Origin: Paramarasmius palmivorus
Lineage: Eukaryota > Basidiomycota > Agaricomycetes > Agaricales > Marasmiaceae
Length of the DNA: 64,000 nucleotides
Reading direction: 5' to 3'
Assembly: GCA_037176845.1 (NCBI GenBank)
Contig: JAYKXP010000099.1
Span: 113,701-177,700, forward strand
The position numbers were made by a program, and so were the translations under genes. Numbering within the stretch: position 1 is the stretch's first letter; each line of letters begins with the position of its first letter. Positions 11,222-60,700 of this stretch are shown here, piece by piece. The notes under the pieces are model-generated. The model was not told the DNA's origin, did no database searches, and saw nothing but the letters and a program-made list of their open reading frames with translations.

Positions 11222-11567
11222 TCATGATTCATCAGGCGACTCTATCACCGTACCCTTTTTCGACTGGCCAGGGTCTGAATCGTGCCTTCCCATAGGCATT
11301 GGTCTCTTCACGCCATCGGAGTTAGACATGGACTGTGTCCTCACCATCTCTCGCTCCTTCTCCTTTGGCAAAGTGAGACCTATCCCACTCGAAACAGTAG
11401 AATCCGATGCGGGAGTCGATCCAGCAACGGAGGCAGAAGAAGCCGCTTCGCGCGCTTTCTCCTCGCTACTCTTCATAATCTCGCCTTCCACACCACTGCC
11501 GCCACCCAACCAACCATCGAAATAGCCTTTCGGCTCTTGGGGGTAATGTTGTTGTTGTTGTTGTTGT

Positions 11568-11605
<38 letters not shown>

Positions 11606-21319: not shown

Positions 21320-22625
21320 ATGGCTTCTGCACGAATGTTCAGGGTCTTTATGCTCGGCTCTACGGGCTTCCTAGGATCTCAACTTCTTGTTGAACTTTCG
21401 CGCTCCGAAATCTATGCCAAGACGTTCCATATCAATGCCCTTCTTCGATCTGTCTCACAGGAGAGGGAATCTACCCTGAAAGGAGTCTATTCCGACCTGG
21501 AGATCGTTGAGGGCAGTCTTGACGATGAAGACATCATCGAAGAGCAGGCTTCCCAAGCAGATATTGTGATCAATTGCGCTAGTTCCGATAACGTGCACGC
21601 CGTTAGAGGTGAGGGTTGACAAGCTTGAACCATCAACCGAAGGCCTGATGACGTTCTAGCGACACTATCTGGACTCCGAACACGCTCTGCTCGACAGCCA
21701 GAAAATCCTCCGCTGTATATCCATGTCTCTGGTCTCGGCATTATCAGTGACAACTGTCGAGGCGAGGCTGTCGATGCCATCGAGTACAGTGACACAGACC
21801 TGGACCTTATGAGTTTACCTCCAAATAATCAGCACCTTCTATGCGATGTTCCTATTGTCCAGGCGGGTTCGAGACAGGAGAATCCCATACGCACAGCTAT
21901 CATCTTTCCGGGATGGATCTATGGCGCTGGAGAAGGTTTGTGTTCTCTACCCCGTAGCTTACTGAAATTATTAAGTAACATTTGATGTAGGCGTACAAAA
22001 AGTCACAGCCCCAATAAGGATCCTATTGACTCTCGCCCAGAGTGCGGGCTACCTCGGAACGTGGGGAAACGGCCACAATAGAATAAGCACTATCCATGTG
22101 AAGGATGCCGCGAACGCAATCATAACTCTTATGGACGCTGCCTTTTCAGGAAAAGCACTACAAGTAGGGAATGGAGCCGAGGAGTTGTGTAGGTTTTCCT
22201 GTTGAACCCGCAGACGCGTCGAGTGATATTATTCATAGATTTTTCGGTTAGCCAAGGGGAAGCGGTACGTCTTTCTGAGCTAACGGCTGAAATGGGCAAT
22301 GTAAGCTTTTCCTCACTCCTGTTTAGAGATGGTTCATTTCTTTCCAGATTTTGTATCGTAAAGGCGTGGTCACACTGCCAGGGTCGAGGCCATATCCCGA
22401 CGAGGTTCTGGCACCATCTGGGCACGGTACGATGTTTCCACTCCCTAGTCGCTCATGCAGACAAATAATTTTTGCTTAGCTGGTTGGTCCTTATTCGGAG
22501 GAAACCTTCTAGCGCGCCCTGAGAGGTTACTCAGGCTTGGTTGGCAGCCCACGGAAACAGCCAAGACGTCTCTAATGGGATCTCTGCCCGTGGAATTGGA
22601 GTATGCCATGCAGGCAAAGAAATAA
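21320..22625 (+). CDS. NAD(P)-binding Rossmann (SDR-like) protein, copy 1 of 3
   Basis: MASARMFRVFMLGSTGFLGSQ opens with a G-x-x-G-x-x-G nucleotide-binding motif. Then come DIVINCASSDN (end of exon 1), PPLYIHVSGLGIISDNCRGE, IRTAIIFPGWIYGAGEG, GYLGTWGNGHNRISTIHVKDA and LQVGNGAEELC. Three short exons close the gene: DFSVSQGEAVRLSELTAEMG, ILYRKGVVTLPGSRPYPDE, and AGWSLFGGNLLARPERLLRLG through to AMQAKK-stop at 22625. All exon joins keep the frame, so it looks functional. It is the same family and exon layout as the genes at 28033 and 30588, but the most diverged of the three. The family resembles atypical SDR/NmrA-like epimerases. I see no classical Y-x-x-x-K pair, so substrate and reaction are open. 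An upstream ATG at 21227 would add 31 residues; the paralogs support the later start. Confidence 0.8.
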
Positions 22626-22765: not shown

Positions 22766-23284
22766 TCAGTTTACAAGCTCATAGGCTCTGAATTCGGCCG
22801 CCACCACCTTGCCCTGATCCACAACTATTCTTCCCTGTCCGACCAACACAGCAAAATTCATCCAGCCAAAGTCTTTGCTGGACGTATTGCAAGTAAACGT
22901 CTGAAAGATGTAGGCCTCCCCAAATTCAGAGGAGGTAGCGTTAGGATCACCAGAGAGGATTTCTCTGATCTTGTCATTAACATGTACGAATCCCCTGGCT
23001 TGGAACCTGAAAAGCTCCTGCGTATCGCCAACTGTTCGCTGAGCGAGTATGTTGATATCCACTGCGATGGCACCATACTCTGTGAAGGCAGTGGTGTAGT
23101 CTCCCCCTCCAGGCAACACCTTCAGGTGGAGTTGAGGGTGAGTCGACGGAGAAGCAGATTTAATGAACCCGCCAGTGGCTCCGAACCAGTCGACCTGTCC
23201 GAGGGGTGTGTCGCCCCCTGGAATAGCTGGTGCAAGGTCTATGTGGAAAGTCGCGACGTGATGAAGGTGAGGATGCTCAGGCAT
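22766..23284 (-). CDS. DUF3237 family protein, copy 1
   Basis: Single-exon frame of 172 residues starting MPEHPHLHHVATFHIDLAP and ending FRAYELVN-stop. It shares long blocks with the gene at 23960-24487: PQLHLKVL.GGGDY, FQ..GF.HVNDK..EI..GDP and SSEFGEA. It closes with a domain-end pattern of a GQGRI-type turn and a final strand, as in DUF3237 (UPF0311) beta-barrel proteins. No function is established for the domain. A start at 23389 would add a basic stretch, but the paralog starts at the equivalent of M23284. It is convergent with SDR copy 1 (141 bp between stops) and lies within the candidate peptide cluster region. Confidence 0.75.
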   Translation of the reverse strand: MPEHPHLHHVATFHIDLAPAIPGGDTPLGQVDWFGATGGFIKSASPSTHPQLHLKVLPGGGDYTTAFTEYGAIAVDINILAQRTVGDTQELFRFQARGFVHVNDKIREILSGDPNATSSEFGEAYIFQTFTCNTSSKDFGWMNFAVLVGQGRIVVDQGKVVAAEFRAYELVN

Positions 23285-23959
23285 GATGAGTGAAGTAGAG
23301 TACTGACGACACAGTGCCGGTAAATTGGTCGAGTCAACAGTTTTCTTGTGTCTTTTATACACTGACCTTGCACTGACCCAGGGACCCACGCAGGTGGTAT
23401 GCAGTGCTATCGGGAACGCTAATGTTGAGAAGAAGTTTAGTGACCGTTTTTCGGGAGCTACAAAAATCAGTAGACTAGAGCGTCCCGGGCTAAGCTGAAC
23501 GTATGTGGCGCAAATCCAATTGATTCGATTGCCACCCGTCCTCTTTCAAGTTCGTTGGAGCTGTCATGCATGTCGTAGCAGCCCAATCCATAGCCACAAG
23601 AATGAAGAGAGTGAACCACTTGAAGGTGACTTTCAAAGTCTTTTGTTATCGTGCTGAAGGGTTCAACTCCATTCTAGCGGGCAACCCGCGCTGACCGATA
23701 GCAAGCCCGACGCCACCCGGACTGCGGGTAAACGGGTGCTATTGGCAAGTAGCGCCACATCTAGGAACAAAATCACCCGACTCGGACTTCGCTGTTCATG
23801 ACGCTGTCCGATCGTTTCAGGATTTGTTAGCGTTTCCTATTCCGACTTATGACTACTAGATTACAGCGCTACAAACGTACAAATATAGTCTCGAATGTCA
23901 TGCTGTTGTTAAATCAGGCATCTATCTACATATATTCTAAGTTCTAGCTTCGGCGGGTC
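23285..23959. other. Spacer between the two DUF3237 genes
   Basis: No gene seen. It should contain the promoter of DUF3237 copy 1 and the 3' region of copy 2. A 'tttatac' element lies at about 23355-23361, upstream of copy 1 on the minus strand. Confidence 0.45.
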
Positions 23960-24487
23960 CTACTTTGCAACCATCTCATAAACCCTGATCTCGACCGCCA
24001 CCAACTTGCCCTGCCTCACAATCTGTCTACCTTGTCCAATCAAGATTGCGAAATTCATCCAAGCAAAGTCATCACTGGAGGTGTTGCATGTGATGTTGAT
24101 GTTGATGCCCGCCTCCCCAAATTCGGTGGAAGTGGCGTCAGGATCTCCGGCGAAGATTTTCGCGACTTTGTCATTGACATGCCCGAATCCATTGCCCTGG
24201 AATTTGAATAATTCCTGTTTGCCGTCGACTTCTCGCTGAGCAAACGTGCGGATATCCAGCGATACGACGTTATGCTCTGCGAAAGATGTGATGTAGTCTC
24301 CCCCTCCGGACAACACCTTCAGGTGGAGTTGGGGTTGAGCTGATGGGGAAGCAGAAGTGATGCTACCGCCAATGCCCTCGACCCAGCTTGCCTGTCCCCG
24401 AGGTGTATTGCCACCTGGAACAACAGGCGCAATGTCTATGTGGATATTTGCGACGTGATTGAGACGAGGATGAGGATGTGTGGCCAT
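23960..24487 (-). CDS. DUF3237 family protein, copy 2
   Basis: Single-exon frame of 175 residues starting MATHPHPRLNHVANIHIDIAP and ending IRVYEMVAK-stop. It is colinear with copy 1 along its whole length, with no large gaps, so the pair is a tandem duplication in the same orientation. The last third (CNTSSDDFAWMNFAILIGQG) is the best conserved part. It has no signal peptide or membrane segment, so it is probably cytosolic. It lies directly downstream of the repeat-peptide precursor, on the same strand, about 560 bp away. A role in modifying or binding that peptide is only a guess from position. Confidence 0.75.
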   Translation of the reverse strand: MATHPHPRLNHVANIHIDIAPVVPGGNTPRGQASWVEGIGGSITSASPSAQPQLHLKVLSGGGDYITSFAEHNVVSLDIRTFAQREVDGKQELFKFQGNGFGHVNDKVAKIFAGDPDATSTEFGEAGININITCNTSSDDFAWMNFAILIGQGRQIVRQGKLVAVEIRVYEMVAK

Positions 24488-25050: not shown

Positions 25051-25698
25051 TCACGGCACGCATCGGGTACCTTTCTGACCTGATCGAAGTCCATGCTCGC
25101 ACTGCCTTCTATACACCTCACGCTTCCACCAATCTTGATTCAAGTTCGCAACATCCACATCTACCTGGTGATTTGGCGCATTAGCATAATACTATCTAGT
25201 CCGCAGACGCTGCCGCCTCACCTCGCGTTTCAACCAATCCTCTTTTCTGTCCGCGGCATCCACATCGACCTGGTTATTCAACACATTAGCGTCATGCATC
25301 ACATGCAGTGTCACCGCCTCACCTCGCGCCTCAACCAGTCAAGATTTCTATTTGCAGCGTCCACATCGACCTTGAATTAGAATCGTCAATGCAACACGTC
25401 TCGCTCGTGCCTACTTTTCCCTCACCTCGCGTTTCCACCAATCTTGATTCATGTTCGCAGCGTCTACATCGACCTACACCCAATGCTATCAGCGTCATGC
25501 TATCTTGACAAATGATTTCCTTACCTTGCGTTTCCACCAATCTTGATTCGTGTTTGCGATGTCCACGTCAACCTATAGTTGATGGTGTTATGACATTGCA
25601 CCGTCCAAATCGTGATCGATCCCTACCTCTTTGGTCGGAGCTGCAGCGGAAGCCGCGACGAAGGCAAACAGAGAGAGCAACTTGAAGGTAGTGCGCAT
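25051..25698 (-). CDS. Secreted Kex2-processed repeat peptide precursor (candidate RiPP precursor), one repeat per exon
   Basis: Exon 1 (25698-25627, 24 codons) encodes a signal peptide, MRTTFKLLSLFAFVAASAAA followed by PTKE. Five exons of exactly 48 bp follow, all phase 0, each one 16-residue repeat: VDVDIANTNQDWWKRK (25572-25525), VDVDAANMNQDWWKRE (25473-25426), VDVDAANRNLDWLRRE (25370-25323), VDVDAADRKEDWLKRE (25269-25222) and VDVDVANLNQDWWKRE (25164-25117). Introns are 54, 51, 55, 53 and 57 bp with GT-AG ends. The tail is uncertain: read-through gives 21 more residues to the TGA at 25051, but a last intron is possible. Each repeat ends in KR or RR, a Kex2 site, as in KEP proteins and dikaritin RiPP precursors. 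Secretion-pathway cleavage should release 16-mers ending in the dibasic pair. A TATA-like run lies about 37-46 bp upstream of the ATG. It is divergent from a UstYa-type gene. Confidence 0.85.
25117..25572 (-). repeat. Five tandem exon-plus-intron units, period about 100 bp
   Basis: Repeat exons start at 25572, 25473, 25370, 25269 and 25164, giving spacings of 99, 103, 101 and 105 bp. Not only the 48-bp exons but also parts of the introns recur (donor gtgaggcgg in introns 4 and 5; 'atgacgct.at' before several acceptors). The duplicated unit was therefore exon plus intron. Confidence 0.85.
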
Positions 25699-26052
25699 CT
25701 TTGGCTATATTGTTGAGAGGCTTGACTCGATCCAGTATATATATAGGTTGCAAGGGCATAGGGGCTGGCAAGCGAGATGCCACCTCATTCCTTGGTATTA
25801 GAGGACCGACGCCACCACAGAAGATAGCCGTCTTAGACGCTATCAGCTGCTACCACTTCAAGAGAGAAATTCTCCCACTCACCAAGGAAGCCCGATATCA
25901 CTGTTCATTGAGCATGTACGCTGTCACTTTCAGAGATTAGCGCGTATCTTGGCATCAACTCTTTGGTCACTCCTACGGCCTCATTCGGTATGTGTGGTGA
26001 AGCTTGGGCATGCCTAAAAGCTTCTGTATTCGATGGCCTTGCCTTGTTCGCT
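25699..26052. promoter_or_regulatory. Shared divergent promoter of the peptide precursor and the UstYa-type gene
   Basis: 354 bp separate the two start codons. A TATATATATA run at 25735-25744 sits 37-46 bp upstream of the precursor ATG on its strand. No comparable TATA is obvious for the right-hand gene. A shared region would allow co-regulation of precursor and modifying enzyme. Confidence 0.5.
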
Positions 26053-27049
26053 ATGGCTCGAGAAGACGACTATGCCCCGTTGCTTCAAGACGAGCATGAC
26101 ATCGAAGAGGCGAGGGAGTCTGGCAAACACATCCACTCCTGGGGCAACCTCAGCAACGCGATTATTCTTCTCCAGTCGATCGTGATTGTGGTACTCCTTA
26201 TAGCAACATCGCAAACGAGTTCCTCGTCAAAGAGTAAAGCCTTGGTCTACTGTAAGTTGAGGTCGAGTACTGGGATACTTGAAGTGAAGCGCTGATGTAA
26301 TCGAAGCCCCGGCGAACCATCTTATACTCGAAGAAAAGATCGTCAAGTTCCACAGCGGTATTGGGAACAACACATCGATATACATGGGAGAACCGTCGCC
26401 CGAATTGGATAGAGTATGGGAGGACCTTTACGGATGTAAGTAAAAGTGAGGTTAGCTCTCGATATTGAAAACTCACCAGGTATAGTTGGGATTAGCAAAG
26501 TATCGAAAAACGAGGCAGATCAGCTTCCAATGAAGACTGTCCGAGTCCCGAGTGACCCAAGTCACTACATCGTCCAACTCGACGTGTTCCATTCGTTGCA
26601 TTGTCTGGTAGGTCCCAATCAGCTCGGAGCTGTTAACGAGTGCCTTATTGGATCGACATACCGCTAGAATATGATCCGTAAAGCTCTTCATCCGAACTAC
26701 TACCAGCAACCTCACAGTAGCAATCATCATGGACAAGTCGACGCAGGCGATGAAAATGAGCACCTGGCTCACTGCCTGGAGCATCTCCGCCAGAGCGTCA
26801 TTTGTTCTTCAGGTATGACAGTATGGCAGAATTGCCGTATCATGCTGATACTGATTCTCTGTTCCCAAAGATGTGAGCACGATAGTCTGGCAGTGGATTC
26901 CAGAGAGGAACCAGACCATGGGTCGGCTGGATGTGCCGCATACTTGCAGAGATTTTGAGAAAATTAGCGAATGGGCTAGACAACCAGAGAATCGGCTCCA
27001 TTACGAGACTTTCGACTTGCACGTAAGGCCCTCAAGTGACGTGGAGTAG
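26053..27049 (+). CDS. UstYa/DUF3328-type oxidase (RiPP cyclase-like), membrane anchored
   Basis: Five exons (26053-26251, 26307-26435, 26480-26607, 26668-26812, 26871-27049) total 780 bp, or 259 residues, and keep frame at every join. The N-terminus is cytosolic (MAREDDYAPLLQDEHD), followed by one membrane helix, NAIILLQSIVIVVLLIA. The family pattern follows: YSPA start, IYMGEPSPELDRVWEDLY, then the first H-x-x-H-C motif in DVFHSLHCLNMIRKALHPNYY and the second in HLAHCLEHLRQSVICSSDVS, then VWQWIPERNQ and HTCRDFEKISEWA. UstYa-family proteins oxidise the core peptide side chains of dikaritins (ustiloxin, asperipin) and form the ether or C-C cross-links. Both metal-binding-type motifs are intact. 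Its divergent neighbour is the repeat-peptide precursor, its likely substrate. An upstream in-frame extension to about 25963 exists but does not improve the family match. Confidence 0.85.
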
Positions 27050-28032: not shown

Positions 28033-29355
28033 ATGGATCTCCGGCTTTTCCTCCTTGGTGCTACGGGATACATAGGATCACAGTTCTTATTCGACCTGGC
28101 CCGTTCTGGCACCGCCAAAAAGTTTCATATACGAGCCCTGGTGCGAGCTTCGCCGGAGAAGGAAGCTCGATTGAAGGAGATCTGTTCGTCTCTCCAAGTC
28201 GTTCATGGCGACCTGCAGGACGAAAATCTCATTCAGGAGGAAGCCTCTAAGGCAGACATCGTAATCAACTGTGCTACTAGCAGCGACTGGCCTTCCATTC
28301 GAAGTGAGTATTGACCATCTAAGCCGAGACCGCACGACAAACTTACAACACACCTTGGTATCAGGTATACTCACTGGGCTCGAGAAGCGATCCAGCGAAA
28401 ACGCAGGGAATCCTCCTCTATACATTCACACTTCCGGCATAGCTATTATCAGTGATAACTGTAGAGGCGAAGCCGTCGAGTTCAAGGAGTACACCGACAT
28501 TGGCTTCAAACTCGAAGACCTCCCCGAAACAAACGTGCATCTTGATTGTGACCTCGCTATCGTACAGGCAGGTACCCGGAAGGAGAATCCTGTGCGAACT
28601 ATCATGCTCTTCCCAGGATGGGTATACGGGGTTGGAGAAGGTCTGCATGGTCCTCATAGTATCCGTAATCTGTATTGAACTTGACTTCTAGGGATACAAA
28701 AGATCACTTTCCCTTACCGAACGCTTCTGGGACTCGCGAGCAACGTCGGATTCGCGGGTACATGGGGAAAGGGATTCAACGGGACGAGCAACGTTCACGT
28801 CAAAGACGTATCCAGTGCAATATTGGTTTTGCTGGACAGTGCTCTAGACGGGAAAGTAGGCACAGTTGGCGCCGGCGCTGATGATCTGTGTGAGTATCCC
28901 GCTTCAAGACCCTGTGCTATTCAGTTGACCCGAAAGCATAGATTTTGTTACAAGCACCGAGAAGGTGATCCTGTATCATGAATTAATGACGAAATTTGGC
29001 GATGTAAGATCCTACTTTCTGAGTGTTCTAATGAATCTAATCCACCCTTGGCGTTGACGTTAGATACTGCATCGTGAGGGTGTGGTAAAGTCACCTGGAT
29101 CAAGACCTTACCCAGATGAAGTGCTAGCGCCTCTTGGAGAAGGTATGAGAGGTCTTGTTAGCGTCATATCATAAGCTTAAATGCTATTGCTATCATTAGC
29201 TGGCTGGTCCGCGCTAGGCGGCAACGAGCGCGCTAGCTCAGACAGATTGGCTAATTTAGGATGGGAGCCCGTTGAAACACGAAGGAAGCCGCTGTTGGAA
29301 TCTTTACCCGAAGAGATCGAGGTTATCTTGCAGGAGATGAAGGCCAAGGCCTGAA
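28033..29355 (+). CDS. NAD(P)-binding Rossmann (SDR-like) protein, copy 2 of 3
   Basis: Starts MDLRLFLLGATGYIGSQFLF with the glycine-rich nucleotide-binding motif. Later blocks are KADIVINCATSSDWPSIR, GNPPLYIHTSGIAIISDNCR, VRTIMLFPGWVYGVGEG, VGFAGTWGKGFNGTSNVHVK, DFVTSTEKVILYHELM, REGVVKSPGSRPYPDEVLAP, and AGWSALGGNERASSDRLANLG ending MKAKA-stop. Six introns sit at the same places as in the other two copies. Frames are intact throughout. DNA and protein similarity to the gene at 30588 is very high, so these two arose by recent tandem duplication. It is a probable cytosolic oxidoreductase or epimerase with unknown substrate. Its location next to the peptide pair makes a tailoring role possible. 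Confidence 0.85.
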
Positions 29356-30587: not shown

Positions 30588-31923
30588 ATGGATCTTCGCG
30601 TCTTCATCCTTGGTGCTACGGGATACATAGGATCCCAGTTCTTATTTGACCTGTCTCGTTCCGGGACCGCCAAAAGGCTTCATATACGAGCCCTGGTACG
30701 AGCCTTGACGCCAGAAAAGGAAGCTCAATTGAAGGAGATCTGCTCATCTCTCCAACCCGTCGAGGGCTCGCTGAAGGACGAAGACCTTATACAGGAGGAA
30801 GCCTCTCAGGCAGATCTTGTAGTCAACTGTGCCAATAACAGTGACTGGCCTTCCATTCGAAGTGAGTAATGATCATACGGCGAGGCAAGAGTGCACAAGA
30901 GACTCATACATCATGCCTCTAGGCATACTCGCCGGGCTCGAAAAACGATCCAGTCAACAACCAGGGAATCCTCCTCTATACATTCACATCTCAGGCATAG
31001 GTATCATCAGCGACAATTGTAGAGGCGAAGCCGTCGAATTCAAGGAGTATACCGACGTTGATCTCAGACTCGAAGACCTCCCCAAAACAAACGTGCATAT
31101 GGACTGTGACATCGCTGTCGTGCAAGCGGGTACCAGGAAGGAGAATCCCGTGAGAACTATCATGATATTCCCGGGGTGGGTATACGGGGTTGGAGAAGGT
31201 GCGTTTCGGCTCCTGGGTATCCACAGTTTGTATTGAAAATATATATCTAGGTATACAAAAGATTACTGTTGCATACCGAACATTTCTGGAACTTGCGAAC
31301 AAGGCTGGATTTGTAGGTACATGGGGAAAGGGACTCAATGGGATTAGCAACATTCACGTCAAAGACGTGTCCAGCGCAATGCTGGTGTTACTGGACGCTG
31401 CTCTGGATAGGAAAGTAGGCGCGGTAGGCGCCGGCGCTGATAATCTGTGTAAGCAGTTCACTTCTTCAGACGCCGTGCCAACCAGCTGACCTGAAAATAT
31501 AGATTTCGTTACCAGCTCCGAGAAAGTGATTTTGTACCATGAGCTAATGGCGAAACTCGGGGATGTAGGAACCTGCCTTCTGAGCCATTTCGTCCTTGAC
31601 ATTAACGATAACGTCAGATAATGTATCATGAGGGTGCGGTAAAGTCACCTGGATCAAGACCTTTCCCGGACGAAGTGGTGGCGCCTTTTGGAGAAGGTAT
31701 GATAGATCTTGCTAGCATCACTTCATTGACTGAAATTTAATTAGTTGGCTGGTCTATGCTAGGCGGCAACGAGCGCGCTCGCTCGGACAGATTGGCTAAT
31801 TTAGGATGGGAGCCTGTTGAAACGCGAAAGAAGCCTGTGTTGGAATCTCTCCCAGAAGAAGTCGTGGTTATTCTAAAAGAGATGAGAAGCAAGGACCATA
31901 TCGTGGAAGAGACCCCAAAATAG
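30588..31923 (+). CDS. NAD(P)-binding Rossmann (SDR-like) protein, copy 3 of 3
   Basis: Starts MDLRVFILGATGYIGSQFLF. The same ordered blocks follow: ADLVVNCANNSDWPSIR, GNPPLYIHISGIGIISDNCR, VRTIMIFPGWVYGVGEG, AGFVGTWGKGLNGISNIHVK, KVGAVGAGADNLC, DFVTSSEKVILYHELMAKLG, HEGAVKSPGSRPFPDEVV, and VGWSMLGGNERARSDRLANLG. The C-terminus is longer than in copy 2, ending HIVEETPK-stop at 31923. Intron positions match copies 1 and 2 and the frame is intact. As in its paralogs, the Y-x-x-x-K pair of classical SDRs is not seen after the PPLYIH strand, which points to an atypical SDR or a reductase using other residues. Confidence 0.85.
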
Positions 31924-32437: not shown

Positions 32438-33349
32438 TCACTCTTCGAACCGGTAGAAGTGCCCTGTGTCGAAGGCGTTGTCCCAGGCAACGTCGCCTTC
32501 CACACCAGAAAAGATCTTTGGGTAGGCGAACATATCCGCAAGCTCTTCATCGTCCGGGTAAAGCTGCCCACACATCCCATGAGAGCGTAAGAGTGGCTCA
32601 ATATACTTTTCACTGAAGTAAGCAATTTCCAGCTGAATTTCATCTGAAAGCAGAGCGGGGTTGAACCTGGAAAGGTCCATTGCTTTTCTGTCAGTGGGAT
32701 GAAGAAACTTCATCGGATCAATGTCGTGTTCCAGGTAGGCGTTCCAGGTGATTGGGCCCCTTGTATCTGGGTCGACGTTGAGTTCAAGAAGACGTTGGTG
32801 AATATCCGCAGCTTCGTCGATCTGGTTATAACTAAGGTTAGCAGTCGGGTTCGTAAGAATAATTAGAAGCGAAAATACCTTGGGGGTACATTCTCTAGTT
32901 GAGTCGTGGAAGGAGAACACGGAAGATAAAGGAGGTAGGAGCGGAGACTCCGTGTTATGGCAAGTGGGTGCGGAGGAGGCGGAAGAAGAGGAAGCTGAGG
33001 AAGAAGAAGCACGACCTGTCCATTGAGGTCGCGCATTGGCGTAAGGATGGGCTGCTCTCGCAGAGCGCCTTGCCAACCTATCGGCCGCAGCCTGTTCCTT
33101 CGCGAGAGCTATCTGTTCCTTCGTTCTAGGACGGAACTTCCATTCTGGATTTTGCTCTCTGTGTTGCTTTTGAATATCCTTGGCTCTTTCTTTGTAAATC
33201 TCCTTCACTTTCTCATCGAAGTTCTTCCACTCTTCCGTAGCGATTGCACCAAGGTTCCCTGAAACCCCTTCTTCTTGTAATTCTTTCATCCTTTTGGACC
33301 TATAGATGATGAAGCAATTAGGTGGCCGAGGGATGTGTTCTTCGGACAT
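32438..33349 (-). CDS. HMG-box (MATA_HMG-type) DNA-binding protein
   Basis: Starts MSEEHIPRPPNCFIIYRSKR and runs through an HMG box of about 70 residues (WKNFDEKVKEIYKERAKDIQ, ending NPEWKFRPRTKEQ). This is the fungal MATA_HMG/Sox-like pattern of sequence-specific DNA binders. A basic/Ser-rich linker follows, then an acidic C-terminus (YPDDEELADMFAYPKIF) that could be an activation region. The frame is open over the whole length, but the stretch from about 32877 to 32821 has perfect intron features: GTATTT donor, CTAAC branch point and CAG acceptor. It is 57 bp, so splicing or retention both keep frame. Spliced, TPK joins IDEAADIHQRL. Nothing suggests a mating-type locus here, because no homeodomain or pheromone genes are nearby. 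Confidence 0.8.
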   Translation of the reverse strand: MSEEHIPRPPNCFIIYRSKRMKELQEEGVSGNLGAIATEEWKNFDEKVKEIYKERAKDIQKQHREQNPEWKFRPRTKEQIALAKEQAAADRLARRSARAAHPYANARPQWTGRASSSSASSSSASSAPTCHNTESPLLPPLSSVFSFHDSTRECTPKVFSLLIILTNPTANLSYNQIDEAADIHQRLLELNVDPDTRGPITWNAYLEHDIDPMKFLHPTDRKAMDLSRFNPALLSDEIQLEIAYFSEKYIEPLLRSHGMCGQLYPDDEELADMFAYPKIFSGVEGDVAWDNAFDTGHFYRFEE

Positions 33350-37599: not shown

Positions 37600-39327
37600 T
37601 TATATCTCTACTAAGGAGAATCGAAGTCCTGTGGCCCTGAAAGGTTTCAACGCCTCCAGATGTGGTAACCAGGAATCTCTCGAACCCCCGTCATGGTATA
37701 TTGTAACGCTGACGGACAGTAAGCTTTCCACATGACTCTTAAGAACCGGTTTCCATCTTGATACAACAGCGTTAAAGAGCGCATTGACGTCCAAGTTACT
37801 ATCGAACACAACCAATGACAGGTTCGAAAGCCGGGGCAGCAGTGGCGAACTTGACAAGGATCCGATTTCGAGAACCAGACGGCTCAAAAAATGCGTGGTG
37901 ACAATGCGGTTCCCCCCTTCTCCATCTATCCCACCGTGTTCTTCGAGTGCGAGTGTTTCTAGTGCTGGCAAGAGCGTAATCAGAGCTAGCACCTGATGGT
38001 CGTCTAACAGCAGATTTTCCAATTGTAGGGATGTAATCGTGCATTGCGATCGCACGAGAAACTTTTCGATGTATGATATCATCCTAGTTTCTTCCCAATT
38101 GTGCTTTAACTCTCCATCCTCAAAGTGACTGATTGTGAGGGAAGTCAGAAGAGGGAGCGTGGCGAAGCGAAACGTGAACCCGGGGACCTCTGACGCCTCC
38201 GTGAGATGGATGTTCAGGGAATGGATATGAGGAAGGGTGATGAGCTCGCTACTGGTGACCGTGTCGAAGTCCCAACCGATGGTCGATAAAGTCACTTCCT
38301 CAAGAAGAGGGCACTTCATCAGCATAGCAAGGGCATCGCCTGTACGTGAATCGCGCAACGTCAGGGACCTGATTTGTGCCCAAGGCAAGACAACGTCACG
38401 ATGAGCATCGGGTAAACATTCGACGGAACCGAGCGCTGGGCAATTCGAGAACATGTTTTGTTTTGGGAGAACGACGTCACTGAGCAAAACAAGGCGTTTG
38501 AGCATTGGGAGGTTAACTGTGATGTTTCCGGTCACAAGGACTTCCAAGAAAGCACGACTGAAAGTAACGTCCAACCACCGGTCGGTGCTTTTGATAAGGT
38601 GACTGATGATTTCCGTAGGACAATTCAAACAGTCAGATAAATCTAATGTTATCGGCATGTTCCTTGAACGCTCCATGAAAAGCTTGGTGATTTCTGCTAA
38701 CGACCTTTCCGATGCGCGCGTTTGACGGTCGCCAGTCATGATTCCGAGTCCCAATCTTGACCATAAAGATGGTGTCGAGAGGATGATGTCTCGCCAACGA
38801 CCGCAAACCATGGAGAGCTGAATGACTTTGGGTTTCTTCGAAAACCCTGAGAGCCAATTATGCGCGCAACAGAAACCGAAGATATCGCTGAGGATCTCCC
38901 TAGGAAGCCTATGAACCGGGGATAGCAAAGAACGATAGAGTTCCATCGATTTTTCCAGCCCTTTCCTCCTGTGTTCCAACGTTTTCATCGCCGCAAAAAG
39001 CCTGCTCGCCTCGACCTCACACCTCCTCATATCGCCTTCAACATCGATCAGGTATTGGGAAATGACTTGTCTATCATGCTCGGATAGGATGCCGCGACTT
39101 TGAGAGATTCGATGTAGACTGGAATTCCGAGCGGTGTTGGATGACGATTTGAAGGTGAAAAATAGGTCTGACATTTCTCCGTGTGTTTTTGCCGCTATCC
39201 TAGGATTTGTTGGGTTGAGTGAGTTGAAGGAAGCTTGAACGAAATATGATAGCATACCGGACAGAGATGAGAGTGGAGAGCAAGGTACAAGCCTGGGCCC
39301 GACGCGATCCTCGTTCTTATTTAACAT
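37600..39327 (-). CDS. F-box / leucine-rich-repeat protein
   Basis: One uninterrupted frame of 575 residues. A coiled region (EASRLFAAMKTLEHRRKGLE) precedes the F-box, HRLPREILSDIFGFCCAHNW with VCGRWRDIILSTPSLWSRLG. LRR-like strands follow (LPWAQIRSLTLRDSRTG, CPLLEEVTLSTIGWD, FATLPLLTSLTISHFEDG, TSLQLENLLLDDHQV), and the end is LSVSVTIYHDGG. F-box proteins bring targets to SCF ubiquitin ligases through Skp1, and the LRR part picks the target. Fungal expansions of this family evolve fast. Internal methionines (MLSYFVQ, MSDLFF) offer later starts. The relics at 2.1-4.2 kb belong to the same broad family. Confidence 0.85.
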   Translation of the reverse strand: MLNKNEDRVGPRLVPCSPLSSLSGMLSYFVQASFNSLNPTNPRIAAKTHGEMSDLFFTFKSSSNTARNSSLHRISQSRGILSEHDRQVISQYLIDVEGDMRRCEVEASRLFAAMKTLEHRRKGLEKSMELYRSLLSPVHRLPREILSDIFGFCCAHNWLSGFSKKPKVIQLSMVCGRWRDIILSTPSLWSRLGLGIMTGDRQTRASERSLAEITKLFMERSRNMPITLDLSDCLNCPTEIISHLIKSTDRWLDVTFSRAFLEVLVTGNITVNLPMLKRLVLLSDVVLPKQNMFSNCPALGSVECLPDAHRDVVLPWAQIRSLTLRDSRTGDALAMLMKCPLLEEVTLSTIGWDFDTVTSSELITLPHIHSLNIHLTEASEVPGFTFRFATLPLLTSLTISHFEDGELKHNWEETRMISYIEKFLVRSQCTITSLQLENLLLDDHQVLALITLLPALETLALEEHGGIDGEGGNRIVTTHFLSRLVLEIGSLSSSPLLPRLSNLSLVVFDSNLDVNALFNAVVSRWKPVLKSHVESLLSVSVTIYHDGGSRDSWLPHLEALKPFRATGLRFSLVEI

Positions 39328-49424: not shown

Positions 49425-51134
49425 CTATGTGGCGCTGCCGAAAATCTGGTAGCGTCTGCATATACTGGGGCCGATTTCGTCGTATTGTGCCTTTGTATGG
49501 CAGGAAGTGTAAAATTCGGGCTATTAGGGATTGAACATAGTCAATACGCATGACTTGAAGCACGACAACCCAGCAGCTTACAAGAGATGCCAAAAGGGAA
49601 CCTCCAAACCACACAGCATAGCTAAATTGTAGATCAGAAAGCGTAAATCATTTGACCGTATCGAGGAACGTACCGCTGGCGTTTGTGGGAGATAACGTCG
49701 ACTTCGACACCCGACGACTGTGTATACGTCAATTATAAGATCTAGAGTTCTGTAGCGATCCCACCTTTTGCGTGCTTCCACTTGCAAGAACGCTCGCATC
49801 CAGTCTACGATCGACGAGCTGCTTCAAATCCCGCTTCAGACGATTACCGAAATGTTGGAACATGGTGGATCCGCCGGATAACACAATGTTCTTCCAGTTC
49901 TGTTAGCTTGGTCGACTTGCTGATGTATGAACGAACGTACTTTGTACAGCCCACGACGAACATCGATTGGTGACTGCTGAATGACATCGTCAACAATCTC
50001 AGGAAGAGGAGTAAGGAAATCAGAGGAATAGATTTCCGGGTTGAAGAATATCTCTGGCGCAAGGAAGCGTTCATATCCAACGTCGATAGCATATTTCTGG
50101 GAAATACTTTGAGCAAGTGCAGAAACAGGACAAAATTCCAATTTACCCTCCCCGTCACACTATGTTCTCCTTCAAACCTCTCAAAGTATTTGTATGGCTC
50201 CGCGTCGTACTTTCTGAACTCCTTTACGATATCTTGACATACATAGCTGTAATTCTCTTTCACTTTACCCGCAATTCGAAGCTGGTCTTCTGGAGGAATA
50301 GCGGCCGTCTCTCCACGCTCACGCATGAGATTTAGGACGAACTGGGTGATATCACGTCCTGCGATAGGGATGTGTTTGATGGCACTACCAATAACGTAGC
50401 CCTCAGCGCATGGAATGACATGGGTGACACCGTCGCCGGAATCTATAACGGTGCCAGTGAGAGTACGATCGGTGACACGGTTGGACGACCAAGAAGCAGC
50501 GAGAGCGAGGACGGCCTGAACGGCGATGTAGAGGCCTTTGATGTTGAATGATTCAAAGAATATTTCAGCTGTCTGTTCCCTGTTCTCTGGTGGGTTCAGA
50601 GGGGGTTCAGTCTGTGTGTGTTATCAGCTATCTGGGACTGTGTACAGTGATCACTGCTGCGCACCAAAAGAAAATAGTGATCCTCCGGCTCTGCCCTCAG
50701 ATACTTGAAGATAACCTGCTCCCAATAACGTTCCATATGATCCCAATTATCAATCATTCCATGTCGAATAGGATAGTGAACACCATATCCTGGAGTTTTG
50801 GCGTTTGCCAGTGCCTCATCTCCGATGAAAAAGTCAAGATCCTCGACTCCACGTTTCGACGCGAGGTGTCCGGGCTTCGATGGTACTGCAGGTGCACGAG
50901 AAGATTGTGTTGCGGATCCTCGAGTGGCTATAGCAGTGGGGAAAACGCTGGAGGATATCGGTAAATCGAGAGGTGAGAGTGACGATGCTAGACGTACAAG
51001 GATGGGTCGGAATTTCCGGCAAAGCTGTTTACGAAAGTGAGAATGGATGAGGATTGAGAAATTGGCGGGTACGTTTACCCAATCTTTGAATAGCCAGTTC
51101 CATTATCACAGATGATGGGGGCGAGGAGAGACAT
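49425..51134 (-). CDS. ARP3: Actin-related protein 3 (Arp2/3 complex subunit)
   Basis: [19 protein letters not shown] is followed by exons giving [37 protein letters not shown] with [100 protein letters not shown], and later [53 protein letters not shown], and the C-terminal [20 protein letters not shown] ending in FGSAT-stop. The [19 protein letters not shown] and PIRHG motifs and the Arp3-type inserts separate it from actin and Arp2. Arp3 nucleates branched actin filaments at endocytic patches and hyphal tips. About seven short introns keep the frame. Confidence 0.9.
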
Positions 51135-57742: not shown

Positions 57743-60700
57743 TTGCTTTTCAACAAACATCTATTCACTATGGCTACTGACCGTTACAATTTGCGAAACC
57801 GGGCTTCTACTACCAACGTCAACGGCATCAACAACAACGGTGAGCAAACCTCTATTTCCAACGCTCCCCCCACTGCTCCCGCCGCTACTGACCAGCCGTC
57901 CCCGACCGTAAATGGTCGTGAGTCCCCGGATGGTGCTAACAACACCATCCGTGCGCCCCCGGTCTACGGCGACCGTGTGTCTCAGCTGCCCCAGCAGCGA
58001 TCCATGCGCCCGAATCCCGCGGCCATGAGAAGCAGCCTTGGTATTAGAACCAATGGTGTTGATGTACCTATTATGGATAGGCTTAGTTCTCCAGAATCAG
58101 ATGATGTACCACAGCGTCAACTTACCTGGGCTGAAGAGCTTCAAGCTCTTCATGACACGACCCAACCTACTCAGCAAACGCAGCCTCCGAGCTATGAGGC
58201 AAGCGCTGCCTTGACTCCGCCAACACCTGCGCAAAGGCCCCGAGCCCGAACTGCTTATGTTGAATCGGTTTCCGACAGTGAAGATGGTGGACCTTGGACT
58301 ACTGTACAACGTCGCCGCCGTAGCAGCTATAGCCGATCTGTATCCCCGAGACTCAATACAAATGTTAATGGAATTGAACGAGAACTTACCAGTGATCAAG
58401 AACGAACCATTGATCGTGCAGTCCGCGAAATGACTGATGAACAACTTGCGGCCTTGAATCGTCGTGATAGTATCCGAGTTAGGCCTGGTGACGACCAGAC
58501 CAGTGACGACGAAGAACCTGAACAACCTGCCAATAAAGGCAAGGGCCCAGATCCCCGCAACTGGGGAGTGAAATTGACCGCCGCTGAAAAGAATCTAGAT
58601 ACTCAGCGTGCATTATTGAACAGCATGAAGGAAAGTTTACCTAGCCGTAATCGGTTTGCCGTTTTGGAAAATGAATCTGACGGCGAGTCCGAAATCGATA
58701 AAGATAGTGACGAAAGCGTCGCACCCAATGTGCAGAACATTGCCGAAGGTCAAGCCGGACCCTCTAGGGTAAAGAAATCCAAGAAACCAAAGCAATCTGC
58801 TAAGAAGGATAAGAAGAATCCTGTTGAGGCGCAAAGGGCAGCCTCTGAACCCATGAATGATCTAATGCATGAGCAAATCAATAACCTATTGGGCAACAAG
58901 AATAAGAAACATACCTCAAAGAAGGCAGGCAAGAAGACTGCCGTATCTGGCTTTAGAAAGCCGGCTGATTACATTGCACCTGGAAGTCACCTTGCGCGTA
59001 CTCTGGAAGGCCTTGGTAAAGGTGGAGGACCACCTTCTGACTCAAGCTCTTCAAGCTCTTCAAGTTCCTCAGACAGTGAGGACAGTTCTTCATCTTCAAG
59101 CTCCTCGGATGATGGAAATAATGGTGGACATGGTGGTGGAGATGATTCTCCGAGCTCTAGTAGCTCTGAATCCGATAACCACCGCCGTGGCAGAAGCATT
59201 CGCCGAAGACGTCCTCGAAATCGTTCTCGACGTCGTCATAGTTCTAGCCGAAGAACTCGTCGGCGTAAACTGAACTTGAAACCTGATCCGCCAACCACAT
59301 ATGATGGTACAGCAGATGTTCCTACATTGATGAAATGGATTACTGAGACATCAGAATACATGAAGGACGGGAACGTACCTGAAAGCCGTTGGGTATTCAA
59401 GTCCTCGAAATATCTGTCAGGCACTGCCTATCAGTGCTACCTCACTACCGTTGCTAATGACCCATTCAGCTGGGCATTCCAAGACTTTTGTACGGAGCTG
59501 TACAATTTTTGTTTCCCGCTCACATATCGTCTTGACCAGCGTAATCGTCTCCGCGATTGCCGTCAAGGTGGTCGGCCAGTGCGAGTATACCTTGCTGAAA
59601 TCAAACAGCTATTCAATACAGTTGGCATGATGGATGAGCGAGAAAGGATTCACAAAGTATGGACTGGATTTGATGACCGAATCCAGAAAGGTCTCTGGAA
59701 CAAGGAGCTCCATCCCGAAATTTCAAGCTTTGCAGAAATTGAACAGCAGGCTGAAATCATTGAAATTATCAACAATGTGAAGAAAGGATCAAAAAAAGAT
59801 AACTCACAGTATACGAGCCATGCAATGCATGTTTCGCGTGATAATCATAGTCGACGTCGTCATGATTCTCGGCCTCGACAACCTGAGAATCGTCCGTCAC
59901 ATCTGAATCACCGTAATGGTCGTTTCAGTGGACGTGGGCGTGGATCTTTCCGAAAACATGGGCCAAGTCGTCGGCATGATTCTCAACCTAGAAATCACAA
60001 TCAGCACACCAATTCTCAAGGTAGCTCAAGCAATAAACCACTTACTGAGGAAGAACAAGCTCAGCTTCGCGCTGAGAATCGTTGCTTCTACTGTAAAGAA
60101 GTAGGTCATATGGCCCGTCAATGCCCTAAACGAAACAACGTGAAGTCAGACAAAAAAGGAAAACCCCCTGGATTGACTACTCACAACATGGAATGGGAAC
60201 TTGCGGATATTGAGACACTACGAGAAATGGCAGAGGAGACGACAGACATTCATAGTCTGTCTCTCAACGTCATGACTCTATCTCCGTGTCTATCCGAACT
60301 TGATGATCTTGAATTCGCCGAATATTCGTCGGATTGCGAGAGCGTTGACTGGTCAGATTATGCAGACTCTGGGGTCTCCGGTTTGGAGGAAGATTCATAT
60401 CCTAGATCATTGTTGCTCTCAGGACATGACTCTCAACAATCGGGACTTTCAGACTCACATTTCGGACAAGAACCAATGACTGACTCGGATGATGACTCAA
60501 TGCCGCCGTTAATTCCTATTGTAAATGAATCTGAAGATGAACAATCAGAAGATTGTTCTTGTAGTTGCAGTTTTTGCATACCTGATGAAGACATTGCCTG
60601 GGATGATGATGTTGTGATCCCGTGCGACTCCGACAAACTATTCGAACTCTGCCCTCTTGATGCTGGATGGCTTGAAACAGAGCTGAAAGGCTTGAAGACA

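What the first reader, a model, noticed from the sequence alone, without database searches (positions are those of the whole stretch)
25051..25698. Secreted precursor with five Kex2-bounded 16-residue repeats, one per 48-bp exon
The sequence shows a clean signal peptide and five successive phase-0 exons of identical length, each encoding VDVDxANxNQDWWKR(E/K) or a close variant, separated by five 51-57 bp introns. Dibasic KR/RR ends are the signature of Kex2-processed repeat proteins and of dikaritin RiPP precursors. Ordinary gene prediction would easily miss or mangle such micro-exons, so the gene may be unannotated. I am not aware of a described basidiomycete precursor with this core.
Basis: partly seen in the sequence, partly recalled or inferred. 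Interest (0 to 1): 0.92.

Follow-up and report, generated by a model that had tools for sequence, protein, structure and literature searches.

The report
Mushroom peptide gene, one repeat per exon
A mushroom carries a small family of genes for secreted repeat peptides in which each repeat, or pair of repeats, has its own short exon, next to a gene for a peptide-modifying enzyme, an arrangement that ordinary gene prediction seems to have missed.

Summary
On the minus strand (25698-25051) a signal-peptide exon is followed by five phase-0 repeats VDVDxANxNQDWWKR(E/K) or close variants: four 48-nt exons, the fifth opening the terminal exon, with GT-AG introns of 51-57 nt, each with an in-frame stop. 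None of 30 shuffles had two such units within 500 bp. A UstYa (DUF3328) gene, the dikaritin class-defining enzyme, lies 354 nt away, divergent. The genome (inferred Paramarasmius palmivorus) has five more UstYa-linked repeat precursors. In four, one or two repeats per phase-0 exon are clear; C31 is less certain. All six are head to head with a UstYa gene, though four were found by looking beside UstYa. 48 modelled introns in five genes are phase 0. Repeats are under purifying selection (pN/pS 0.06-0.25). Trp is in every core counted, Tyr in one of 66, unlike characterised Tyr-based dikaritins. Best reading: Kex2-processed, UstYa-modified peptides with an exon-per-core architecture that my searches did not find described. 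Splicing, cyclisation and function are unproven.

The parts
25627..25698 (-). Precursor exon 1: signal peptide MRTTFKLLSLFAFVAASAAAPTKE
   Evidence: best 10-residue stretch has mean 2.58 on the Kyte-Doolittle scale, against 2.68-3.14 in six other precursors; no dedicated predictor run
25573..25626 (-). Intron 1, 54 nt, phase 0
   Evidence: GT-AG, in-frame stop on read-through
25525..25572 (-). Repeat exon 1, VDVDIANTNQDWWKRK
25474..25524 (-). Intron 2, 51 nt, phase 0
25426..25473 (-). Repeat exon 2, VDVDAANMNQDWWKRE
25371..25425 (-). Intron 3, 55 nt, phase 0
25323..25370 (-). Repeat exon 3, VDVDAANRNLDWLRRE
25270..25322 (-). Intron 4, 53 nt, phase 0; similar to intron 5 (z 3.8)
25222..25269 (-). 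Repeat exon 4, VDVDAADRKEDWLKRE
25165..25221 (-). Intron 5, 57 nt, phase 0
25051..25164 (-). Terminal exon: fifth repeat VDVDVANLNQDWWKRE plus a tail to TGA (end uncertain)
   Evidence: alternative terminal introns
25699..26052 (.). 354-nt shared intergenic region between divergent ATGs, possible bidirectional promoter
   Evidence: promoter role inferred
26053..27049 (+). UstYa (DUF3328, PF11807) oxidase gene, 5 exons, 257 aa, HSLHC at residue 145 and HLAHC at residue 182
   Evidence: E 5.7e-48, first model, 259 aa; corrected model

Best explanation
The locus encodes the precursor of a secreted, ribosomally made peptide family of the dikaritin type. The transcript is spliced so that a signal-peptide exon is joined to five phase-0 units, each carrying one core (shown as a sequence model, not as RNA). 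The protein enters the secretory pathway. Kexin (Kex2) cuts after KR/RR and carboxypeptidase Kex1 trims the basic residues, releasing about 14-residue peptides such as EVDVDVANLNQDWW (inferred). The divergently transcribed UstYa homologue then oxidatively modifies the cores, most plausibly at the conserved Trp or between Trp and an Asn/Asp/Val side chain, since no Tyr is available in the repeats (inferred). Because every internal repeat is a phase-0 exon between short introns, units can be duplicated, lost or skipped without breaking the frame (inferred). A similar design recurs in sister loci of the genome. Biological role: probably a secreted defence, competition or host-interaction peptide (weakest step, no evidence here).
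For: Exon model with phase-0 GT-AG introns that cannot be read through. Signal-like exon 1 in the window gene and six others. Dibasic end on 5 of 5 repeats. Adjacent UstYa with two HxxHC motifs, which PMC12048977 (passages seen) describes as the suspected active site of the class-defining enzyme. Umemura 2020 (PMC7329392, passages) reports that DUF3328 genes peak at the position next to the precursor gene. Five sister precursors, four with a clear one-or-two-repeats-per-exon layout; 6 of 6 head to head with UstYa, ATG-ATG 354-1778 nt. C21 was found by sequence alone and then proved to be UstYa-linked; C1, C84, C26 and C31 were found in stretches chosen around UstYa, so for them linkage is ascertained but orientation is not. 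48 of 48 introns phase 0 in five genes, after dropping the doubtful terminal introns of C99 (phase 2) and C84 (phase 0). pN/pS 0.20 here and 0.06-0.25 in four sisters. Window introns 4-5 (z 3.8) and C21 introns 5-7 (z 3.9-6.6) are similar, as expected if exon+intron is the duplication unit.
Against: No RNA, peptide or product evidence. No Tyr in the window repeats, and 1 of 66 core stretches across the six genes. No tyrosinase, P450, methyltransferase or peptidase of such clusters among the open frames scanned (10 frames; 91 of the 148 listed; genes split by introns could be missed). The NmrA-like and DUF3237 neighbours do not recur in the sister stretches, so only precursor plus UstYa is shared. 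The window UstYa has HSLHC where all 14 aligned homologues have HQLHC. Sister C26 has a single KR. No homologue of the precursor in other species was found. Intron similarity is patchy: 7-38% of pairs exceed z 2 depending on the gene, and some of the best pairs are not neighbours (C1 3-8 z 4.1, C84 8-13 z 3.2, C21 1-4 z 3.3).
Confidence: 0.77

Rival explanations
1. A plain Kex2-processed repeat protein (KEP): the peptides are released linear and unmodified, as signals or surface-active peptides, and UstYa acts on another substrate.
For: KEPs without DUF3328 nearby dominate in Basidiomycota: 103 of 1680 had one in Umemura 2020 (PMC7329392, passages). PMC9769878 (passages) describes minimally modified KEP peptides and basidiomycete KEP cores with a C-terminal Trp.
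Against: Head-to-head UstYa at 6 of 6 multi-repeat precursors, with the ascertainment noted above.
Confidence: 0.15
2. A secreted structural or cell-wall repeat protein that is not cut into peptides; the repeats work as a polymer.
For: C26 has sixteen repeats with one dibasic site, and C84 mixes RR, KR and repeats without either.
Against: Dibasic ends in the window (5 of 5), C21 (8 of 8) and 13 of 14 C1 units; very short chains; UstYa linkage.
Confidence: 0.05
3. A decayed or non-expressed relic whose regular exons are historical.
For: No protein match; the related locus C99:6544/C199 (L026, L027) looks partly degenerate.
Against: All window splice sites and frames intact up to the uncertain terminal exon; pN/pS 0.20 with high synonymous change (pS 0.70).
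Confidence: 0.03

Closest known systems
Dikaritins (ustiloxin, phomopsin, asperipin-2a, victorin)
   Same: Signal peptide, tandem cores, dibasic Kex2 sites, adjacent UstYa/DUF3328 gene with two HxxHC motifs
   Different: Cores with Trp and almost no Tyr; one or two cores per phase-0 exon; basidiomycete host; no shared tailoring genes beyond UstYa found. That the ascomycete precursors are not split per repeat is recalled, not tested
Kex2-processed repeat proteins (KEPs) of Le Marquer 2019 and Umemura 2020
   Same: Secreted repeat precursors with dibasic spacers
   Different: Le Marquer 2019 started from predicted protein catalogues (passage); the words intron and exon do not occur in the main text of either paper; 103 of 1680 basidiomycete KEPs had DUF3328 nearby (Umemura 2020)
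Epichloecyclins (GigA)
   Same: Signal peptide plus KR-containing repeats (PMC6514808, passages)
   Different: Host phylum, and repeat sequence as far as recalled; exon layout not compared
Schistosome microexon genes
   Same: Secreted products built from short symmetric exons (search listing only; details recalled)
   Different: Unrelated genes, and (recalled) no repeat per exon and no paired oxidase; a fungal paper puts microexons at 30-36 nt or less

Membership tests
Dikaritin-type RiPP precursor | N-terminal signal peptide | tested here: met
   Hydrophobic exon 1 ending ASAAAP, similar in 7 precursors by hydrophobicity; no dedicated predictor run
Dikaritin-type RiPP precursor | Multiple near-identical core repeats | tested here: met
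   5 repeats, pN/pS 0.20
Dikaritin-type RiPP precursor | Dibasic Kex2 sites between repeats | tested here: met
   KR or RR at the end of 5 of 5 window repeats; sister C26 has one KR only
Dikaritin-type RiPP precursor | DUF3328/UstYa gene in the cluster, two HxxHC motifs | tested here: met
   26053-27049, E 5.7e-48, HSLHC and HLAHC; the first motif has S where 14 of 14 homologues have Q
Dikaritin-type RiPP precursor | Tyr in the core as cross-link site (property of characterised members) | tested here: not met
   No Tyr in 5 window repeats; 1 of 66 core stretches over six genes. PMC12048977 passages treat DUF3328 as class-defining, so this does not exclude membership
Dikaritin-type RiPP precursor | Cyclic or oxidised product | not testable with these tools
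   Needs mass spectrometry
KEP (Kex2-processed repeat protein) | Signal peptide, repeats, Kex2 sites between repeats | tested here: met
KEP (Kex2-processed repeat protein) | Actual cleavage to peptides | not testable with these tools
   Needs peptidomics

The most novel reading that the evidence does not exclude
This mushroom, and perhaps the Marasmiaceae more widely, uses a distinct class of UstYa-modified peptides whose cores are built around a conserved Trp, in three of the six genes in a V-D-x-(D/A/N)-N-x-x-W setting. Their precursors are written as strings of phase-0 mini-exons, one core or core pair per exon, paired head to head with their oxidase. This layout would let core repertoires grow, shrink or be alternatively spliced in frame. 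It would also explain part of the reported scarcity of DUF3328-linked precursors in Basidiomycota, as an annotation artefact.
Probability: 0.42. Interest if true: 0.85.

Novelty: new variant of a known kind. Interest (0 to 1): 0.73.

Why it matters
If true, it adds a Trp-based branch to fungal oxidatively modified RiPPs and shows a gene architecture (core = exon) that I did not see in the listings and passages of my literature searches. It also gives a testable reason why few UstYa-linked precursors are reported from mushrooms: Umemura 2020 suggested that the cyclisation factor may differ or that cyclisation 'might hardly occur in Basidiomycota' (PMC7329392, passage). The practical recipe is simple: look on the opposite strand upstream of each UstYa gene for short phase-0 exons with repeated W-containing peptides.

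Tried and rejected
Protein database searches with the precursor (none of 4501 candidates at E <= 0.001) and with an alignment of four precursors (none of the 8000 candidates scored at E <= 10; candidate cap, length limits and a poor repeat alignment weaken this) gave no homologue in another species. The first micro-exon scan required dibasic ends and saw three loci; the self-similarity scan added three more. The automatic splice models mis-place some parts: C99 exon 4 and terminal exon, C99 terminal exon, C21, the first exon of C1, C84 exon 6 and last exon, and C31 in both. A cluster with extra tailoring enzymes was considered and rejected because NmrA-like and DUF3237 genes occur only at the window locus among the stretches compared. 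UstYa loci without a recognised multi-repeat precursor in the stretches read: L028 (C56; only a signal-like open frame without repeats), the near-identical pair L026/L027 (a short, partly degenerate one) and the lower-scoring UstYa-like loci L029-L035. Some C5 matches lie at the edge of the stretch read. Weak genome matches at C5, C60 and C74 were not pursued beyond a look at L016. No solved structure matches the C21 UstYa (P0001) by sequence; structure prediction never ran.

Full report
What is in the window. The minus strand at 25698-25051 carries a 72-nt first exon (MRTTFKLLSLFAFVAASAAAPTKE), then four exons of exactly 48 nt, then a terminal exon whose first 48 nt are a fifth repeat. The repeats are VDVDIANTNQDWWKRK, VDVDAANMNQDWWKRE, VDVDAANRNLDWLRRE, VDVDAADRKEDWLKRE and VDVDVANLNQDWWKRE. 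The five introns are 54, 51, 55, 53 and 57 nt, all GT-AG and phase 0, and each contains an in-frame stop if read through. The terminal exon reaches a stop at 25051; automatic models offered other terminal introns, so that end is open.

Is it more than chance. The 18-nt core pattern occurs five times in 64 kb, only here, against 0.08 expected. A rule for the whole unit (AG, 48 open nt ending KR or RR plus one residue, GT) is met five times, all here; 30 dinucleotide shuffles gave a mean of 1.13 and never two within 500 bp. A peptide self-similarity scan of the 64 kb flagged only this region and its antisense echo. Differences between repeats fall mainly on third codon positions (20/28/68) and pN/pS is 0.20, so the repeats have been kept as protein.

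The neighbour. At 26053-27049 on the plus strand, 354 nt from the precursor's ATG and pointing away from it, is a five-exon gene for a 257-residue protein with both HxxHC motifs. An earlier 259-residue model that differs at one acceptor matched Pfam UstYa (PF11807) at E 5.7e-48. Against 14 database homologues it keeps the invariant residues I checked by eye, except Ser for Gln inside the first motif. Homologues are named from Paramarasmius, Moniliophthora, Marasmius, Flagelloscypha and, more distantly, Rhynchosporium, Apodospora and Leucogyrophana. The genome is most likely Paramarasmius palmivorus (Marasmiaceae), by inference: two hits named as that species lie on contigs whose lengths, 749645 and 73294, equal C21 and C199 of this assembly, and P0001 aligns from its first to its last residue to the C21 locus (66% identity when introns are translated through). 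Other neighbours are two DUF3237 genes and three NmrA-like genes; none of these recurs in the sister stretches read.

It is not alone. A protein search of the own genome found a second precursor at C21 with eight repeats like ADVDTDAFDNKNIWIKRE. I then read 16 stretches of about 8-10 kb around UstYa matches. They are 14 distinct loci, because C31/C85 give the same repeats and C99:6544/C199 are 96% identical; the window is a fifteenth. A repeat scan without assumptions about dibasic sites found multi-repeat precursors at C21, C1, C84, C26 and C31/C85, which with the window makes six genes among 15 loci. C1 has 14 units like KRAFPVDDANIGWKDEPV, one per exon of about 54 nt. C84 has 18 cores of the DANNDHWTI kind, one or two per exon. 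C26 has 16 cores GVDLDNKQWGLK or close variants, two in each of seven exons and one in each of two. C31 has five (I/L)FAxxAWE-type units whose exon phases and ends stay uncertain. In the five other genes 48 of 48 introns (46-62 nt) are phase 0, leaving out the doubtful terminal introns of C99 (phase 2) and C84 (phase 0); the splice models did not require that phase. pN/pS is 0.06 (C21, 5 of its 8 repeats used), 0.09 (C1), 0.07 (C26 cores) and 0.25 (C84 cores); C31 was not tested. All six lie head to head with a UstYa gene; the distances between start codons are 354 (window), 551 (C21), 546 (C1), 1180 (C84), 427 (C26) and 1778 nt (C31, from the uncertain model). Four of the six (C1, C84, C26, C31) were found because I looked beside UstYa, so their linkage is not independent evidence; the shared orientation is. 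L026/L027 shows a seventh, short and partly degenerate divergent gene. L028 and the lower-scoring UstYa-like loci L029-L035 showed none. Genome searches with the C1, C26 and C84 precursors found no second strong copy; C84 and C26 match each other (E 1.3e-6), so they are probably related, and weak matches at C60 and C74 were not followed.

How it probably arose and works. Some introns within a gene are still similar: window introns 4-5 (z 3.8), C21 introns 5-7 (z 3.9-6.6) and C26 introns 2-3 (z 3.3) are neighbours, while C1 3-8 (z 4.1), C84 8-13 (z 3.2) and C21 1-4 (z 3.3) are not; 7-38% of pairs exceed z 2, by gene. That fits duplication of exon plus intron as one unit, with introns decaying and cores kept, but does not prove it. 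Phase-0 units allow gain, loss or skipping in frame (inference). The signal exon, the KR/RR ends and the UstYa partner point to Kex2 release and oxidative modification of the peptides (inference from the dikaritin literature: PMC12048977, PMC7329392, PMC9769878 and PMC6514808, passages seen). All 66 core stretches counted contain Trp and one contains Tyr. For C21, C26 and C84 the counting pattern itself required the Trp, and for C26 and C84 it covered only 12 and 9 residues of each unit (one C84 unit has a Tyr just before its core), so these counts are partly built in. If UstYa modifies these cores, Trp rather than Tyr is the likely site (inference).

Against this reading. There is no transcript and no peptide. 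Tyr, the site in characterised dikaritins, is absent from the window repeats. C26 has one dibasic site, so Kex2 cannot be the whole story there. No tailoring enzyme beyond UstYa was seen to be shared. No homologous precursor was found outside this genome, though the searches were limited in length range, word sharing and candidates scored, and no related fungal genome DNA was available.

Known or new. Literature searches (open-licence PMC papers only, listings plus the passages named) found no description of UstYa-linked precursors with one repeat per exon. The two KEP surveys do not use the words intron or exon in their main texts. PMC8893723 (passages) notes 16 UstYa-like genes in Pleurotus, probably for dikaritins. 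PMC9233826 (passage) remarks, for amatoxin clusters, that intron density makes basidiomycete RiPP genes hard to find. PMC9632046 (passages) found nine dikaritin clusters in the ascomycete Venturia inaequalis by the same UstYa-plus-repeat logic. [quoted passage not shown] at 48 nt these exons are slightly longer than its limits of 30-36 nt. I therefore file this as a new variant of a known kind: a dikaritin-like, Trp-centred precursor family with an exon-per-core architecture.

Noticed in passing
22766-23389 and 23960-24487 (-): Two tandem DUF3237 genes (62% identical) just downstream of the precursor; not found in the sister stretches.
   Followed up: partly
21338-22187, 28033-28888 and 30588-31447 (+): Three related NmrA-like/epimerase genes flank the UstYa pair; the asperipin-2a cluster also has an isoflavone-reductase gene (PMC6514808 passage), but these do not recur in the sister stretches.
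   Followed up: partly
57743-63349 (+): Long open frame with gag, zinc knuckle, aspartyl protease, reverse transcriptase and RNase H domains: an LTR-retrotransposon-like element.
   Followed up: no
L025 6980-8600 (C26): Sister precursor with 16 GVDLDNKQWGLK-type cores but one KR site, mostly two cores per exon; its processing must differ from simple Kex2 cutting.
   Followed up: partly
L026 2900-4200 and L027 (C99:6544 region and C199): A 96%-identical pair of loci with a divergent UstYa and a short, partly degenerate mini-exon precursor starting MRLTIFAPILALALAYQCLAAPLKPVE.
   Followed up: partly
26053-27049 (+), residue 146: The window UstYa reads HSLHC where all 14 aligned homologues read HQLHC.
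   Followed up: no
L023, L024 and L025: Three of the sister loci carry a second UstYa match in tandem.
   Followed up: no
26053-27049 (+): The window's own UstYa did not appear as an identical protein in the database (best hit 63%), so it too may be missing or mis-modelled in the public annotation.
   Followed up: no
32438-33349 (-), 37600-39327 (-), 49847-50620 (-): HMG-box, F-box-like and actin-family open frames elsewhere in the window.
   Followed up: no
11547-11605: TGT / TGTTGC simple tandem repeat array.
   Followed up: no
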